In this document: positions 36,918-64,000 of the stretch, one piece after another
How positions within the stretch are numbered: position 1 is the first letter of the stretch
Layout: each line of letters opens with the position of its first letter
From: Conoideocrella luteorostrata
Taxonomy: Eukaryota; Ascomycota; Sordariomycetes; Hypocreales; Clavicipitaceae
DNA length: 64,000 bases
NCBI GenBank assembly: GCA_032433595.1
Contig: JASWJB010000023.1
Location: 1 to 64,000 of the forward strand
Direction: 5' to 3'
Translations under genes and position numbers: made by a program
Notes under the pieces: generated by a model
What the model was told of the DNA's origin: nothing
Databases searched by the model: none
Seen by the model: only the letters and a program-made list of their open reading frames with translations

Positions 36918-38459
36918 ATGTCTAGAGACAGAACCTCCTGGTATCGTCTACCTCCCGAGATTCGAAACGAAATCCTCGGTCTCCTGCCAGTGCTCGGCGG
37001 GAGGTACAGCCTGCTCGCGACCGTTTGTCGAGACTGGCAATCCACTCTCGAGCCGCTTAACTTTGCCAAGATTAGCCTGACGGTACCGCGCCTTGCCGAC
37101 CCCGACTCTCAAGCTATTCTATCTCGAAGGAGTAGCCAGATTCGCTACATTTGGTTTCGCGTGGAACTAAAACAATACGATTGCGGACAATGCGCTAACA
37201 CTAACCCGGACAATTGGGGCCTAGACAATATTGATAATCAATTCATCGCGGATGCCTTTGAAAGCTTGTTTACGACACTTAGCGCATGGGAACCCCGCGG
37301 CGATTTAATGCTTGATATTAGTGTCTACTCGCCCAGTGATAACCAGCACTGGTTTAAGTACCTCAGCTTTTGTCCAGATACAAACGGTGGCAAGTGCTCG
37401 TCTCTCCATGAGCATACACAAGGAATAGCCATGATAAATGACCCGGCTCATGGCTGGCTTACCGGAAGACAAGCCTTTACTCCTGACGAACACGCTATTG
37501 AACAAACATTTAAAGAGATCATGGGCGAAGGGCCTTTTGAGGACGAGGAACCCGAGATGCAGTGGTGGCGGGGTCTCCCCCTTGTACCTGTTATCGGGGC
37601 TGTGCTCCTTCGCCAACAAACCCGCCTGCGATGGAAGCCAGTTGCACTTGCTAATATGTTCACGCGGTTCCCCAACATGAAAGAGCTTTGTTATGAACCC
37701 TGGAGGGAGTGGACTGGGATTGAGAGGCAAACCGATAAACGTAAGTGGTTAGCAATATAGTTGTTGTGGCAGCTAATAAACCAGAATATAGGCACCCAAA
37801 CGCTACTTGAATCTTTTCCGTTAACGAAATTACGCAAACTAACAATATTTGAGAACTTTAATGAGTTATACCCAGAAAGAATCTTCCTATGCCCTGCTAT
37901 TAGGGTGCCGGACTTGGCCGTGAGCCAGAAACTTGCCTACGCTAGCCTGCATCTCATAACACTATCCGCCTCTTTTATGGTCGATGCCAGTTACTTCTTC
38001 GCAGCACGTCAAGATTCATGGATTTGGGAGAAACTTACTTCTCTGGCACTGACTTCAAGGGTCCTCACTGGCGACGCGGACACACTAAATATCAATAGCA
38101 TGCTGCAAGATGCCGCTGCAGCAGCGATTAAAATGCCAAGGCTTAACATAATAGAGATATGGAATGGCAGACGGGGTGTGGCAATGCTCTTCCGCTATCA
38201 GAGGGCTCGAGATGGGCAATCGGCTATTATCACGGTACGGGGGACATCGGGACTTTCTCTAGGAATTGAGACCACGCAAGCTTGGGATATGGTCGCCCAC
38301 CGGCATCACCATGGCAGGGTCGTTGTACAAACCTCTTTGATCGATCCGGCCTTGATTCGATGCCACGGCGATGCGATCCGTCAGCTGGGACTTTTTACCG
38401 AGGTCGCTAGGCCTGTCTCGGTCCAGCAAATCCTCAGTGAGCATAGGTTTCGGGGTTGA
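36918..38459 (+). CDS. DUF6546-type F-box protein, 496 aa
   Basis: Exons are 36918-37740 and 37792-38459 (GTAAGT...ATATAG, branch GCTAAT, phase 1). The N-terminus reads WYRLPPEIRNEILGLLPVLG and LLATVCRDWQSTLEPLNFAK, an F-box-like helix set. RYIWFRVELKQYDC follows, typical of the Pezizomycotina DUF6546 family. F-box proteins bring substrates to SCF ubiquitin ligases, but the target here is unknown. The middle carries an acidic patch before EMQWWRGLPLVPVIGAVLL. The C-terminal half has leucine-rich LRKLTIFENF and LPRLN-like steps that suggest LRR-type packing. Length and splice phase fit the family and there is no decay. It is intact between two repeat-rich blocks. Confidence 0.82.
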
Positions 38460-55137: not shown

Positions 55138-55992
55138 ATGGCAAACCAAGTCAAGAATTATTTCCTGTCCCCGAGCTGGGACTATGCGCCAGATGGCAAG
55201 CCCGGGGTGACGATTGCGCTGTGGAATATCGTCAGCTCGCCGACAAAGATGGTACCGCCGCTTGCAGCGGCCACCGTCGTGCCCGAAGAAGATGACACTG
55301 GCAAATCTACTAAGACGGGCTTCGAGTGGACGCGCGAGCGCGAAAAGGAGAAGAAGTTTGGCGTTTGGACCAAGTTTCTTAACTGGATCGTGGGAGCCGG
55401 CGTCGATATCGGCCACAACCGCACGACGTCCATACATGACCTGTATACGTTTAAGGAGATGGCTACCAAGGAGGCGTTCCCGAGTACCGAGTACCTCGAG
55501 AAGATGGTTAAGGACGGCCCCGTGCGGAAGTATCTCGAGCGATTCGATTTTGAGAAGCCCGTCTACGTCGTAGTAGGCACCAAGGCTGTGTGCGGCACAA
55601 CTGTTAAGCAGGTGTTGAAGAAGGAACGGTCGACCGATTTCAAGCTCAGCACCGACGCGATGCAAACAGGAGTACCCATCTCGCTAGGACCAGAAGTCAA
55701 GGTGGGGAGCAAAGACGGAGACACACTCGGTTTCACGGGCTCCTCTGACTTTGTCTTTGCCTTCCGCATCCGCAAGATTGTGGTGGATCGCAATTTTGAA
55801 ATAGTAGATCAAGACGACGAGACAGAGGGCACTGCGCTAGGACCCGATGATGATGAATCTGGCGATGATCTTGTCGTGAAAGGATTAGAAGGCCGTGACA
55901 GCGGGGCAGCTGATGTTGCTGGCGGAAAGGAGGAGACCGTCGAAGAAGACGACGAACCCGTTCGCATCACGATCTTTAGCGAATCCGGGTAA
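55138..55992 (+). CDS. Gasdermin-like protein, 284 aa
   Basis: Single exon. It starts MANQVKNYFLSPSWDYAPDG. GVWTKFLNWIVGAGVDIGHN, KPVYVVVGTKAVCG and SSDFVFAFRIRKIVVDRNFE follow, then an acidic 65-residue tail (DQDDETEG, DDDESGDD) ending RITIFSESG. The order VYVV-strand, variable beta/loop block, then FAFRI.KIV.D resembles the last strands of the gasdermin pore-forming domain (in animals VYVVTEVL...LAFRVAQLVID). Length is close to the fungal gasdermins RCD-1 and HET-Q1, as I recall them. In HET-Q1 a short C-terminal piece is cut off by a partner subtilase to release the pore-forming part, and the acidic tail here could play that role. A complete-triad subtilase gene ends 1.1 kb downstream on the opposite strand. 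This is sequence-pattern inference; a structure comparison is decisive. Confidence 0.55.
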   Translation: MANQVKNYFLSPSWDYAPDGKPGVTIALWNIVSSPTKMVPPLAAATVVPEEDDTGKSTKTGFEWTREREKEKKFGVWTKFLNWIVGAGVDIGHNRTTSIHDLYTFKEMATKEAFPSTEYLEKMVKDGPVRKYLERFDFEKPVYVVVGTKAVCGTTVKQVLKKERSTDFKLSTDAMQTGVPISLGPEVKVGSKDGDTLGFTGSSDFVFAFRIRKIVVDRNFEIVDQDDETEGTALGPDDDESGDDLVVKGLEGRDSGAADVAGGKEETVEEDDEPVRITIFSESG

Positions 55993-56087
55993 AGATGGAA
56001 ACTCAGGTGGTAGATGCCTAAGCGTCTTTTCGTTGGCGGAACATTTTTTAGGTATAAAAAATCATTGAACGAAGTCTATACACATAC

Positions 56088-56260
56088 TGTCACGATGTGA
56101 GCAGCTATGGTTATCTGATGCGTGCAGTGGAATAATGCCGTTGATTTCTATCTAATTTGACGGGGAGTTTGACAGCTATTTATATCCGAAATACCTCTCT
56201 AGATGCCATCAATCTAGGAATTCCATCAGACCTTCCTGGATTCGTTGAATTCGATAGTTT
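56088..56260. repeat. Partial family D LTR-like copy
   Basis: It starts TGTCACGATGTGAGCAGCTATGG and shares TTGATTTCTATCTAATTTGACGGGG with 33422-33795. The far end is not recognisable and no duplication pairs with CATAC at 56083-56087. Confidence 0.6.
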
Positions 56261-57083
56261 CGTATTATCCTTGTTCATCTTGTTGTGGCAGGATTCTTAG
56301 CACCTCTTATTGTTGTCTTGTCACGACTAGATTCTGATATAGCAGAGTGACGAACAAGACTCCTGATGTATTCGTTACTTCGTAGCAGCACGCTATTGTT
56401 GACGGTCTTAATTTCTGGCCTTCTAAAGACTTGGTCTCCTCCTTCCCTACTTATGCCTCGCCGCTACCCCGCAGTGAAGAGTTTGCTAGCTGCATGGTAC
56501 TCTCCTCCAATAGCCTAAGGTGCATCACTAGCTCCACGGCCTCACGTGGTCCCTGAATGCCCTCACAAGTGGTAGTCTCTGACATGTCTATTGCCGCGAA
56601 CCGTGGCGGGCGACTAATTTTTCAGCTCTTCTATTGTGAGCAGAAATGAGGCTTTGCTAGCATCTAGAATAATAGAATTATTTGTAACCCAAAGGCCCGA
56701 AGGATTAAATGGAATCTAACAGGATTCCATGCAATTCCGCGCATGCGTATGTGATGCCTTGTTCTGCTGTTGCGTGTGACATATGTTTATAGCCTTATGT
56801 GCCTAGTCTACACTATTTCCACGGGAACATAGATAGAAGAGCCAACTTAATTTTACATGTATTTTAGAGTTTAGCTTAGATAGGTACCTTAGGTCTCGTA
56901 GCTATGAGCTCTTTAAAACGGCGAGTAGGCATTCGTGATCGGTATAAATCGCAGAACTGGAGGATAACAGTCATAATAGATCTTGGTCAGATGTAGTGTT
57001 TAAAAGCGTGTTATGTTGGGGTATAGAGTTAAAAAAAAAAAAAAAAGCAAAAGCCTTTCGCATGTAATACTTGACAATCGCTT
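56261..57083. other. Intergenic between gasdermin-like gene and protease 3' end
   Basis: AT-rich with an A-run at 57030-57046. No coding signal was found. Confidence 0.55.
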
Positions 57084-60000
57084 TCAACCTTTGAGCGCCT
57101 TCTTAATCGCCTCATTTATTGCGGTTACTGTATTCTCCTTGAAGTACTTCTCGACGCCAAGATACTGATACCTCGAGCCAGCCTCGGCATCATCCACTGC
57201 TACCATGGCCTGCAGCACATTTCGCATGCCCTCGTAGCTTTGAATCTTGTGGAAGAGCTTTTCGTGGTCGGGGACTAGAACGGGAATATAGGTAAGAAGG
57301 AAAGCAGAGAGGCAGACAGCGATAGGAGTAGCAAAGGAAGTTCCCGAGAGTAACCTCGTGCTGCCACTTCCCTCTTCCGTGTTGGTCAGCCACGCGGACT
57401 CGATATACTCGCCGAGGATTCCAAAGTTTTCGTCTTTGGCGGGAGGCGGGTTGAAGTCGGACTTGATGCCCTTTCCATTGGTGGAATGGATAGCAAACAC
57501 CGAGTGCTGCCGGGCGGGGAACATCCTCGACTGGTTTCGCCCGTCGTTGGAAGCAGCCGCAAAAACAAGGATATTGTTTTGTGTGGCTCGTGTTACTTGG
57601 TTCCAGATCTCACGAATGCCAAGCGGGAAGCCAAAGGACATGGTGATGATGTCAACCTCCCACTCTTTCTGGGCGTAGTATAAAGCCTTTGGATGGTGTC
57701 AGCCTTCTGGACATAAATTTTCATCCTCCGAGCGAGTGGCTTACATTGGCAACATTCAATGAAATCCCCTTCTTAAAGTCTCGAGACTTAGAAATTCTTG
57801 CAACGTAGAGGTCGATGCTTGGACAGAGATCCAGCAGCAAGGACGCAATGAAGGTCCCGTGACCCGAGATGTCGCCACCTTTCTGGTCCTCAGCCCCTTC
57901 TGATCCATCTATCCAGGAGCGAACACTCTTAATCCGCCCGCTCGGGTATTGACCTTCAAAGTAGCTATGCTGGAGATCGATGCCAGTGTCTAGGAGTGCG
58001 ACCTTCACTTGCCGATCGGATATAGACTTGCCTCCCGGTTTGATCCTCGCTGTGATGATATTCTTGAAGCACTTGAGCCAATCGCTTGAGTCCTTGGCAC
58101 GACTGTTACCGTTAGAAGCGGAAAGATGGCTTTAAAAAAAAAGAGGCTGGTACTGACCCTTTGTCTGGTTCGACCCCATCCTCTACGCCAAAGAGGTTGA
58201 AGTCCTCCTCAATCTCCTCCGCGGCAAACACCTCCTCTGGCTCGGATACCGGCACTTTCAACTCAATGCTTGCCATCTCAAGCAGGGAAGCAGTTTGGTT
58301 GACGCGCCGAGCCGGCGGCTTGGACTCCACTGGTGCTGAACCGAGCAAAGTCGCACGCTTAATGGAGCCTAGGTCCAAAGACTCAAATGCCTCTTCACTG
58401 AGGTCGGACTCCAAAATCGCCCTCTCAAGGGGCTGCACCACGTTCTCGTAAATAGCCTTACGGAGGAGTTCAGGCTGCTTAGGTGCCTTGTCCGGCTTCA
58501 GGCAGTATTGAATCGCATGGCGGTAGTGACGAGACAAGATAAGACAACCGCCGTTCAGCTTTTTAGAGTATACCATGCTCGCATACGCCCACTTTTCATC
58601 CAGGGTCTTCGCTGGTTTTTTGTCAAGGGAGGACTCCAAGGTTTGGCCGATCTGAAGTTCCAGGAGGATGACTCCTAACTCGAGGAGCTGCGGGAAGCGA
58701 TGAAACACAGCCTTCGGTGGCTTAATTGGGGACTGGCCTGGTAGGGATACACACAACCACGGTTTGCACGGAATCCGAGGTCCCCATTGGAAGAAGCGGA
58801 TATTGGGCTGCTGCCATCTGCCAGAGAGCCAACCTCCACCGTGATGATAAGATAGCGCGTGGGAGAGTTGCATTGCGAGTACAATCTTGTCAACATCGGT
58901 CCAATTCATCAAGGCGAACAAGTCTGGATAGCTGTATTCTTTGATTTCTTCGTCAGGATAGTCATGCGGCAAGAAGGACGGTTCGTGAAGCTGCCAGGAC
59001 TGGTTCTGGTCGAATTCGACGTGCTGGAGAAGGCTCTTGAATGTCGGGGTTAGGTTTTGAGCATGCGAACATATACACTCGAGAGGTGACGGCTCCTCTG
59101 CCCTCCACGGTGATTCCTCCTGGTCGGAGTCGGAGTCGGAGGGAGGCTCGTCAAAGGTCACCACGGGAATTGGTGATCTTTCCGTGGTGAGGTCGTATGC
59201 TTCATCTTGACTAGACTCTTGGCTAATGCACTGTTAGGTTTTTAAGAAGAGGCTAAGCGGGGGCTGTTCAAGACGACATACATGGACCGAGGGGAGCAGT
59301 GAAGGCATATCGTCAGCCAGAATCGCTCAGTTTCATCTTTACCCTGCACTAACACGTCGAGCGATCGATCTTCTTTTGGAGGATCCATCGATCGAAACAT
59401 GCCCAATCTTAGTCGCAACTCGACGCTGGTGTTGCAATGACATGATATAGCGTTGAAAACACGGTCGGCACAAGAATAGAAAACGTCGTCGTACGGTGCA
59501 CTCCTTCGAGCCGGATTCGGGTCATCATCATCTATGTTGTCGCCCGACATGAGTGGCTCAAGGCTGTCGCACGCATCGATTAAGTCTCCATGGAGGCATT
59601 TGCAATCTTCAATAGACCCGAGAACATTGCCAAAGCGTTGTGTGTGAGAGTAGAGCCGCGGGTACTGGCGCGAAGCGACGTCTTCTAGGACCTAGTCAAG
59701 AAACACACAAAAGTAAGTTAGTCTGAATCCAGACCGTACATCCCAGTCCGAACGAGTCTCTTCTTGGCCGTACCATACAACATGGTCTAACTTGTCCATA
59801 CAGCACTAGAACGACGGCCTTATGCATGTCGTAAAGCATGAAGGAAAATTTGACTTACCCGCCCCGGTATGTCAGGATCCGCTAAACGCACCTCTAGGAT
59901 GCGGGCAATATGGTGGACCTGCGAAGCGATGGTACTCAGATCTGTGCATTTTTTGATATCGTGGAGGGTCTTGAGGAGACAATAAGTTGCCGTGCGGACA

Positions 60001-60143
60001 AATTTGAGAGCATCGATATGCGCCTCATCCAAGGTCTCGTCCGATAGAAGCTGTTCGCTCCCGCTTTTGATCAACGAAAGACCGCTATTCACGACTTCAT
60101 ATGTACTGATAATGGAGCCTGGCCTGCCTGAATTCCCCTCCAT
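57084..60143 (-). CDS. DUF7580-like/subtilase (S8) protein, 906 aa
   Basis: Exons are 60143-59859, 59691-59282, 59222-58158, 58102-57745 and 57686-57084; every junction is GT-AG and in phase. Residues 1-230 are helical (IISTYEVVNSGLSLIKSGSE). Residues about 235-560 resemble fungal DUF7580 (MNWTDVDKIVLAMQLSHALS, then HHGGGWLSGRWQQPNI). The S8 domain spans about 610-870 with the full triad: Asp625 (VALLDTGID), His668 (SGHGTFIAS), Ser823 (LSGTSFATP), and oxyanion Asn753 (AAASNDG). There is no signal peptide, so it is an intracellular subtilase, as in fungal death-inducing pairs such as HET-Q2, not a secreted nutrient protease. Neighbours are a gasdermin-like gene (convergent) and a pseudoprotease (divergent). 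An upstream ATG at 60203 would add 20 residues. Confidence 0.85.
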
Positions 60144-61006: not shown

Positions 61007-64000
61007 ATGTCAGAACTAACTGGAAAGCACGCACGCGCTTCCATCAGGGACACTGCGGGATCGTGCCTCGACCTCTTTGCATCCGTCCTCCAGGCCAACG
61101 ATTCAGCCTTGGATGTCATACAAGGTATTGATGCTGCAACCCCGCAACCAGACCACGGACGCCTCAGAATCGAGAGGGACAGGTTCCGGATCTGGGCAGC
61201 GAATTCGGCTGCCTTTGCTGAAGGCCGGGGTTCCCTGGACTTCCGTTTGAGGGAGCTGCCGGATGAGTTGGATCAAGTGAGATCTTTGCTCGGGACTATA
61301 TCCTCTCGACTCTCATCATACGGCCTAGCTCTTGCAAATAAAGTAGGCGTGGCTCGTATAAATACAGGGCTAGCGGGAGCCGAGAGCGTATTAGCCATAG
61401 AACACGCCGAGATCGGTTCTAAGTCGGGCGTGCCGGGCCGCTCGAGCGGCACCGATGAAGACCCCGCTCCTGAAGTCGATAAAAGTCCCATGGAGAGCAA
61501 GGTAGACTCCAATACCGCGTTGTTCCGCTACGATGAGGCCCTGGAGGCGATCCACACAAGCATTGATTGGCTGCATCGACTCTCTAACTTGTTGCGCAAA
61601 GCCAGCGTTGTCAATCAGAATTTGCACGCCCAGAGCTACTGCATTCCGGGCGTGGACGCAGAAGGCCTCAAGAGCTATTTCTCCTGGGTCGTCCGTCGCG
61701 ATTTTCCCGGCCTCTCCGAGCAGCTGAAAGGAAGAATGGCTAGCACCATGGTCGAGAGACATCGCCGTGTTCTGTACCGCCGAGAACGATACGGAGCTGG
61801 GTGGAAGCAAGAGCAGTCCTATCGCCGTGAGGAAAAAGTGGCTGCTGAGTCTGAAAAGATAATGAAAGTGGGATCGCTATCCCCGGACTCTATCGATCCT
61901 ATTGCGTCAACTTCAACACACCAGGACCCGCCAGAAGCTGGACCACCGTCGAAAGAAGCATCGAGCCTTTACTCTAGGGGTGCAGTGACAGAGCCCGACC
62001 GTTCGAGATACTATGCTCCATCATCCATTGCCACGGGTCGATCCGCTGCCCTTGACCATGATGCCGAAATCTTACTGCCATCGCCACCCCCCACCTGCCA
62101 AACGGAGCAAAACTTTACTTGCGACTTATGCTGCATGATACTGGACAGCCGTGTGGGTAAAGAACTTGCCCAATGGAGGTATGCAACCCCCATGATTCTT
62201 AGCCCCATATAAAGACACATGCACTCTCACGATAGTTGAAGAGCGCTAAAGCGACCGCCCGCGCGATCTTTGTTGATCTATATACCTAGTCCATTATATC
62301 AACTATGTAAGTACTCTGGTTTGATGCTAGTCACCGGTTTTACAGAAAGCATGTGAAACAAGACTTAGACGCCTATGTTTGTCTCTTTGACCGCTGCGAC
62401 CGGCCGTTCGATATCTTCTCGACGAACAAGGAATGGCTACGTCACATGCGGTCGGAGCACCTCGTCAAATGGGTTTGTCCGGCAACCGACCATGGCACTG
62501 TCGAGTTTGGTACCAAAGAAGAACTCACGGCGCACATGGAGCAAGCACACTGCGACACATTCAGCCCCGAGCTGTTGCCGTACATGATGGACTCTTGCTG
62601 CCAGACCTCAGAGGTCGTCTTCGAAGCCTGTCCCTTTTGCGACAAGACACACAGTGCCATGGAAACACATGTCGGCCACCATCTGCGCTACTTGGCCTTA
62701 AAATCGATCCCTTGGCCGGACGGCGACAACGACATAGAGGAGGAGACCGAGGACGATGACGATCTTGTAGTTGCAGACAAGGATGTGGACAGGGAGACGC
62801 TTGGCCAATCTTTTGGGTCCCTTGAATCTGGTTCCATCTACTATGGTGATCAGAAGAGCTTTCCCATTGCATCCGAGTACGGCGGCAACTCTTTCTTTCT
62901 AGAGCCGGAGCAACAAGAAGAGTGGCAACGCCATGCCTCTGAGCCCAGAGACGTTGACGATGATCGCCAAGCAGAATGGGGATTTATAAGGAGAATCTTC
63001 GATCAACATAAAGAATGGAGAGCCATAATGAATCATGAACAGGTTTTCAACACGAAAGATCCCACAAAGAAGCCAGAAAAAGCCCCTCACAGTGACTGGT
63101 TCCAGCACATGGACAAACTGACTTCTCTCATGACTCCCCGAGAGGACGAACAAGATGAATTATATCGGGAACGGCCTGTGAGAATTGCAATTCTAGGTTC
63201 GGGTATTTCCAGTGAAGCTGAATCCCACTTATCAAATAGATTTGCAGGCGGGAGAACCTTCTTTGATGATGAATTGACTTGGAATGCGGATCCGATTGGC
63301 CATGGCTCCCGCGCCGCTACAATAATTGCGAGGATCTGCATTTCGTCCCGGATCTTCGTAGCTCGTCTCACTAATACTGGAACGTTTCATAAAGACGACA
63401 TGCTTCGGATTGCGAAGGTAATGTTCTTGTCAACTTTCTGTGCTGTTGCGAAAGGTCCTAACACTGGCCAGGCAATTTACTGGGCTGCAGATCTGCGTGT
63501 CGATATTATCCTCATGAGCTGTAACATGTCTGCTATCACCCAAGATATCATGGCTGCCATTGACCAAGCAGCTAAGAGAGGAATACTGATGTTTTCACCA
63601 ATGGTGAACACCGGTCGATCTATAAGCATTAGATTTCCCTCCAATACGACCGACGTCTTCGGCGTGTTTGCAGCTAATTCCGACGGGAAGCTGTTTGAAT
63701 TCAGCCCACGTGCTCCTGCGTCCCTCCATGACTTTTCATTTCCTAGGGAAGGCATGGAAGGCCTATTGCCCGAGACCTCGGGGGGCGATAATGCCGCTGC
63801 TGTCGCCGCAGGAGTCGCAGGAAACTTACTCGATTTTTTTCGGCAGCCCGTTTGTCAGAATTTAAGGGAACATCCCATAACCAAGTTAGATATAGGTACT
63901 ATTTTTAATGCCATGTGTATAACCGGGATGGGACAGTATCGCTATGTTCGCCCTTGGCAATTGCTAGGGGAAGCTTCAGGCAGCCAAGACCGCGCAGGGA
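61007..64000 (+). CDS. C2H2 zinc-finger protein with a degenerate subtilase domain (runs off the window)
   Basis: Exons are 61007-62178, 62346-63417 and 63472 to the window end; phases fit. Residues 1-240 are helical, as in the N-termini of fungal C2H2 proteins. Residues about 370-500 carry several fingers (FTCDLC, YVCLFDRCDRPF ending HMRSEH, WVC...HMEQAH, EACPFC...HVGHHL). An S8 fold follows. The catalytic Asp position is Gly675 (IAILGSGIS), His710 is kept (IGHGSRAA), and the GTSxATP serine block reads GGDNAAAVAAG with Asp854 in place of Ser. Two of the three catalytic residues are gone while the frame and surroundings are intact, so this is a pseudoprotease, not a pseudogene. It may bind substrate, regulate the neighbouring active enzyme, or act as a decoy. 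The C-terminus is missing from the window. Confidence 0.8.

What the first reader, a model, noticed from the sequence alone, without database searches (positions are those of the whole stretch)
55138..60143. Candidate gasdermin/subtilase cell-death module (HET-Q1/HET-Q2 type)
A 284-residue protein whose last beta-strand blocks (VYVVVGTK, FAFRIRKIVVD) resemble gasdermin N-domains lies 1.1 kb from an intracellular S8 protease with an intact Asp625/His668/Ser823 triad. Fungal gasdermins are known to be clustered with S8 or CHAT proteases that cut off a short C-terminal piece to trigger membrane permeabilisation. The acidic tail fits a cleavable inhibitory end. The pair is intact while most neighbours are decayed, which suggests selection.
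Basis: partly seen in the sequence, partly recalled or inferred. Interest (0 to 1): 0.88.

Follow-up and report, generated by a model that had tools for sequence, protein, structure and literature searches.

The report
Fungal gasdermin paired with subtilase
This stretch of a fungal genome encodes a membrane-pore protein of the gasdermin family next to the protein-cutting enzyme that most likely switches it on, a cell-suicide pair of a kind already known in fungi.

The parts
55138..55992 (+). fungal gasdermin (fGSDM), 284 aa, single exon
55138..55788 (+). gasdermin pore-forming N-domain, residues 1-217
   Evidence: Profile match to RCD-1-1 over profile positions 12-210; position 210 is residue 215
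55789..55989 (+). acidic C-terminal tail, residues 218-284, presumed autoinhibitory
   Evidence: Net charge -18; median -15 in 35 aligned sequences. Strands predicted at 245-254, 263-270, 273-280; mean pLDDT 84-86 in residues 251-280. Inhibition inferred from HET-Q1
55828..55842 (+). conserved linker motif GTALG, residues 231-235, candidate cleavage site
   Evidence: Position 234 is L, Y or F in 35 of 35; G231 and G235 each in 26 of 35. A similar motif is clear, by eye, in 4 of 11 paralogue tails. Cleavage itself inferred
57084..60143 (-). DUF7580-peptidase S8 receptor gene, 906 aa, five exons: 60143-59859, 59691-59282, 59222-58158, 58102-57745, 57686-57084
   Evidence: Splice model; Pfam DUF7580 163-500 (E 3e-23), Peptidase_S8 617-843 (E 2e-17); two homologues over 100% of the length at 54-56% identity
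57084..58102 (-). exons 4 and 5 with the subtilase (S8) domain, D625, H668, S823
58158..59222 (-). exon 3, most of DUF7580, degenerate kinase C-lobe-like
   Evidence: Pfam; hhalign of 14 homologues against nine kinases of this genome: score 37.8, probability 49%; best of 100 column permutations 19.7
59282..60143 (-). exons 1 and 2: N-terminal region (residues 1-162) without a Pfam match, plus the start of DUF7580
   Evidence: no kinase similarity in the N-terminal region
61007..63999 (+). neighbouring second S8 gene (ORFs 61007-62212 and 62311 onward to 64068, outside the window; taken as one gene by inference): Asp and Ser of the triad replaced; behind it a shortened RCD-1-like gasdermin at contig position 64727-65434
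   Evidence: whether it works with the first pair is unknown

Best explanation
A two-gene fungal pyroptosis-like module. The 284-aa protein is a gasdermin kept inactive by its acidic C-terminal tail. The neighbouring 906-aa protein is its receptor and activator: an N-terminal region plus DUF7580 (a degenerate kinase-lobe-like domain) senses an unknown non-self or damage signal and releases the C-terminal subtilase. The subtilase cuts the linker after the core domain (most likely at the conserved GxxL motif, residues 231-235), the tail leaves, and the core oligomerises into plasma-membrane pores that kill the cell or hyphal compartment. Shown here: gasdermin homology and fold, triad residues of the protease, physical linkage, conservation of the pair, conserved acidic tail and linker motif. 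Inferred: autoinhibition, cleavage and its site, sensing by DUF7580, pore formation, cell death.
Confidence: 0.86

Rival explanations
1. The gasdermin is activated by partner pairing, as RCD-1-1/RCD-1-2 are, or by another protease of the genome, and the neighbouring S8 gene has a different substrate.
For: RCD-1 is the closest solved relative and is activated by heterodimerisation of two alleles (PMC12881547, passages). At least 86 S8 loci exist in the genome, and one paralogue (C30) also has a CHAT domain about 8 kb away.
Against: Linkage of 13 of 13 gasdermins found to an S8 domain, triad residues kept in 12 of 13, and a tail with net negative charge in 35 of 35 aligned sequences.
Confidence: 0.08
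2. The pair is a relic or a neutral hitch-hiker: both reading frames are open but the module is no longer used.
For: The adjacent second module has a protease without Asp and Ser and a shortened gasdermin, so decay may happen here. Expression data are absent.
Against: Both frames, splice sites, triad residues and start codon are present, and the gasdermin is 77% identical over its full length to its nearest relative.
Confidence: 0.05
3. A pore-forming protein of another family (MACPF/CDC-like) used for secretion or offence rather than self death.
Against: RCD-1-1 leads them by 6.4 Z units and the sequence profile finds only gasdermins. No signal peptide is apparent at the MANQVKNYF start (by eye, no program run).
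Confidence: 0.01

Closest known systems
HET-Q1 / HET-Q2 of Podospora anserina (fungal gasdermin cut by an S8 protease)
   Same: Gasdermin of 278 aa against 284 here, short C-terminal tail, S8 protease partner (PMC10989679, passages); the profile finds the HET-Q1 pore 9uv9 at E 1.6e-9.
   Different: het-Q1 and het-Q2 are idiomorphs (PMC12881547, passages) and HET-Q2 is 388 aa. Here both genes stand side by side in one genome and the protease is 906 aa with DUF7580.
fGSDM / Q2L two-gene clusters of fungi (Clave et al. 2022, not held; seen through PMC10197012 section 15 and passages of PMC12881547 and PMC10989679)
   Same: Gasdermin next to a multidomain protease receptor, most often S8; about 80% of about 1900 fGSDM genes are clustered so. 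Predicted kinase-like domains fused to the protease are mentioned in PMC12881547.
   Different: The texts I saw name ANK, TPR, WD40, NLR and unspecified kinase-like domains. The word DUF7580 is in no paper of the held library; that does not show that the architecture is unpublished.
RCD-1 of Neurospora crassa
   Different: RCD-1 acts by pairing of two alleles (PMC12881547, passages); here an S8 gene is the neighbour.
Bacterial gasdermins with neighbouring proteases
   Different: Sequence similarity only marginal (E 0.40 and 0.48).

Membership tests
fungal gasdermin (fGSDM) | sequence homology of the N-domain to RCD-1 and HET-Q1 | tested here: met
   RCD-1-1 E 8.9e-15, HET-Q1 1.6e-9
fungal gasdermin (fGSDM) | gasdermin N-domain fold | tested here: met
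fungal gasdermin (fGSDM) | short C-terminal inhibitory tail | tested here: inconclusive
   A conserved acidic tail of 67 aa exists; inhibition not testable here
fungal gasdermin (fGSDM) | membrane binding, oligomerisation, pore formation | not testable with these tools
   needs experiment
Q2L protease (HET-Q2-like, gasdermin-linked) | S8 or CHAT protease domain within 10 kb of an fGSDM | tested here: met
   S8 hit 1,284 bp from the gasdermin
Q2L protease (HET-Q2-like, gasdermin-linked) | catalytic triad residues present | tested here: met
   D625, H668, S823
Q2L protease (HET-Q2-like, gasdermin-linked) | cleaves the linked gasdermin | not testable with these tools
   needs experiment
het-Q1/het-Q2 incompatibility system proper | the two genes are idiomorphs, alternatives at one locus | tested here: not met
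   both genes lie side by side in one genome
het-Q1/het-Q2 incompatibility system proper | protease of 388 aa as in HET-Q2 | tested here: not met
   906 aa with DUF7580
RCD-1 allelic system | two antagonistic alleles activate each other | not tested
   only one genome of this fungus was looked at
Pfam gasdermin models | matches a Pfam gasdermin model | tested here: not met
   no gasdermin model among the hits of 35 members; whether those models reach any fungal gasdermin was not tested, so this may speak about the models rather than the fold

The most novel reading that the evidence does not exclude
DUF7580 is a degenerate kinase lobe that serves as the main gasdermin-activating receptor class in this fungus: a pseudokinase-gated subtilase, so that one protein joins the MLKL-like idea (pseudokinase as switch) to the pyroptosis idea (protease frees a gasdermin), cutting at a conserved small-hydrophobic linker motif (GxxL/Y/F in the family, KGAFL-like in some paralogues). 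The neighbouring second module, with a dead subtilase and a gasdermin that lacks about 47 central residues in two genomes, would then be a conserved decoy or regulator rather than debris.
Probability: 0.3. Interest if true: 0.62.

Novelty: new member of a known kind. Interest (0 to 1): 0.42.

Why it matters
It adds a conserved, experimentally tractable gasdermin/protease pair. One genome holds at least 13 gasdermin genes, each with an S8 domain within 7.2 kb, 9 of them with a DUF7580-S8 locus, which gives the uncharacterised domain DUF7580 a likely role as the sensor part of fungal cell-death receptors. A review calls the nature of the stimuli a major open question (PMC12881547, passages); a defined receptor class and a predicted cut site make that testable.

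Tried and rejected
Pfam on the 284-aa protein: only a Cren7 match below the cut-off (E 0.02), rejected as chance. CHAT proteases: 10 matches in the genome (one below cut-off), only one within 10 kb of a gasdermin found (C30, about 8 kb away, where an S8 hit lies at 0.5 kb), so CHAT is not the usual partner here. Matches of the second gasdermin ORF (P0056) at C94 and C13 cover its ubiquitin-like end; no gasdermin was found at either place. The survey of the protease partner elsewhere was limited: one search returned 18 proteins, so the lack of a partner for 12 of 16 named-source gasdermin relatives is no evidence of absence. The chance estimate rests on 111 S8 hits (86 loci), a lower bound, so the 2.8% is a little low; and 2 of the 13 gasdermins (C221, the second C23 gene) were first seen by inspecting S8 or DUF7580 loci and are not independent. 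Structure prediction of the DUF7580 protein could not be run. DUF7580 against nine protein kinases: hhalign probability only 49%, E 1.7e-4 for a single comparison; controls were lower (100 column permutations max score 19.7, reversed alignment 14.3, S8 profile 21.7, gasdermin profile 19.2, real 37.8), so I take it as likely, not proven. No Pfam kinase model matched any of the 15 proteins of the protease alignment, which speaks against a plain kinase. The cut-site motif is clear by eye in only 4 of 11 paralogue tails (C291, C88, C221, C269) and looser or not recognisable in the other 7.

Full report
Observation. The ORF at 55138-55992+ is open and codes for 284 residues. The two genes converge with 1,091 bp between their stop codons.

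The tail. Residues 218-284 carry net charge -18; across the 35 sequences the tail has median net charge -15 and length 66, the core +5. In the low-confidence linker (220-242) lies a short conserved motif, residues 231-235 (GTALG): position 234 is L, Y or F in 35 of 35, and G231 and G235 are each kept in 26 of 35. Of 11 paralogue tails printed, 4 show a clear similar motif by eye (KGAFL, KGALL, KGAFM, DGSMY); the other 7 are looser or unrecognisable. The HET-Q1 pore chain, 232 residues, aligns up to its residue 230 at profile position 227, which is our residue 233, so that fragment ends about at this motif. I infer that this is where the protease cuts; HET-Q1 is reported to be cut at F238 of 278 (PMC10989679, passages), and I did not establish how the chain numbering relates to F238.

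The protease. Pfam finds DUF7580 at 163-500 and Peptidase_S8 at 617-843. The two closest homologues are 911 and 917 aa proteins of Purpureocillium lilacinum and Metarhizium anisopliae at 56 and 54% identity over the whole length. The word DUF7580 is in no paper of the held library. Compared profile to profile with nine protein kinases of the same genome, DUF7580 aligns over what I read as the kinase C-lobe (helix E, the HRD loop, helix F; element names recalled) with score 37.8 and probability 49%; 100 column-permuted kinase alignments reached at most 19.7, the reversed one 14.3, and the S8 and gasdermin profiles 21.7 and 19.2. In the homologue P0038 the HRD position reads SGR, so the catalytic Asp is not there. 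No Pfam kinase model matches any of 15 homologues. I read it as a degenerate kinase lobe, likely but unproven; a review mentions predicted kinase-like domains fused to these proteases without naming a family in the passages I saw (PMC12881547).

Is the pairing more than chance? Genome searches with four gasdermin queries and profiles on fetched stretches gave 13 gasdermin genes, a lower bound; C221 and the second C23 gene were first seen at S8 or DUF7580 loci and are not independent, the other 11 are. C4 is weak with a single query (E 0.0026) but firm with the profile (E 2.6e-10 and 9e-10 for two ORFs); the second C23 gene is weak with the profile (E 9e-4) but firm against RCD-1-2 (E 8e-15). 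All 13 lie 351-7,113 bp from an S8 hit; 86 S8 loci put about 2.8% of the genome within 7.2 kb. Of 17 DUF7580 loci (19 rows), 10 have an S8 domain beside them on the same strand (taken as one gene, which I modelled only for the window, while C492 and C221 are single open frames); 9 of these have a gasdermin, and the tenth, C587, lies at a contig end. The 7 without S8 have none in 10 kb. Triad residues are present in 12 of 13 linked S8 genes. Among named relatives, gasdermin and DUF7580-S8 homologues have near or consecutive locus numbers and equal longest-contig lengths in Xylaria curta (564144/564149), X. scruposa (435187/435188) and Phialocephala subalpina (16837/16838); that equal lengths mean the same contig is an inference. 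Metarhizium anisopliae has both genes but the contig columns differ.

The second module. Just to the right, and partly outside the window, ORFs from 61007+ lead to an S8-like domain (62311-64068) in which the Asp and Ser positions read IAILGSG and SGGDNAAA. Behind it, at contig position 64727-65434, one open frame holds a ubiquitin-like domain (ULD_2, E 2e-22) followed by an RCD-1-like gasdermin (RCD-1-2 E 8e-15) that lacks the part between RCD-1-2 residues 78 and 126. One relative (P0058, 66% identity over the shared part) has the same shortened gasdermin, without the ubiquitin-like part as predicted; one search shows no such second copy in this genome, so it comes from another one. Whether the module is debris or a conserved non-pore form is open.

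Mechanism and place among known systems. The parts, their arrangement and conservation match the published fGSDM/Q2L clusters: about 1900 fGSDM genes in 400 fungal genomes, about 80% clustered with proteases, about 63% with S8 and 19% with CHAT (PMC10197012, section 15 read). It is not the het-Q1/het-Q2 incompatibility system itself, whose genes are idiomorphs (PMC12881547, passages). Shown here: homology, predicted fold, triad residues, linkage, conservation. Inferred: inhibition by the tail, cleavage, sensing and killing. The finding is sound and belongs to a known kind; what I add is the DUF7580 receptor class, the candidate cut site and the dead-protease module next door. On checking I lowered the main confidence from 0.87 to 0.86 because fewer paralogue tails show the motif clearly than I first wrote.

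Noticed in passing
window 61007-63999+ and G000:C23:64727-65434+ (L026 4728-5435): A second S8 gene whose triad lacks Asp and Ser lies beside the pair; behind it one open frame holds a ubiquitin-like domain and an RCD-1-like gasdermin lacking about 47 central residues. A relative, P0058, shares the shortened form.
   Followed up: partly
G000 C221, C291, C30, C269, C203, C492, C88, C5, C171, C105, C4: Eleven further gasdermin genes in this genome, each within 7.2 kb of an S8 hit; the first eight listed have a DUF7580-S8 locus beside them.
   Followed up: yes
G000:C587:147-2130- (L018): A DUF7580-S8 locus with no gasdermin seen in the first 10 of 13.6 kb; the S8 lies at the contig end.
   Followed up: partly
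window 31387-32535-: ORF with a phosphorylase-superfamily domain (PNP_UDP_1, E 8e-10), a domain also listed among N-terminal domains of fungal NLRs (PMC9815663, passages), so the window may hold another sensor-like gene.
   Followed up: no
window 12598-13398-: ORF matching the C-terminal part of Pkinase_fungal (E 9e-39, profile positions 256-386 of 387), apparently partial.
   Followed up: no
window 37761-38456+: ORF matching DUF6546 (E 5e-62).
   Followed up: no
window 48997-50649-: 551-aa ORF whose only Pfam match is below the curated cut-off (E 1e-4), probably chance.
   Followed up: no
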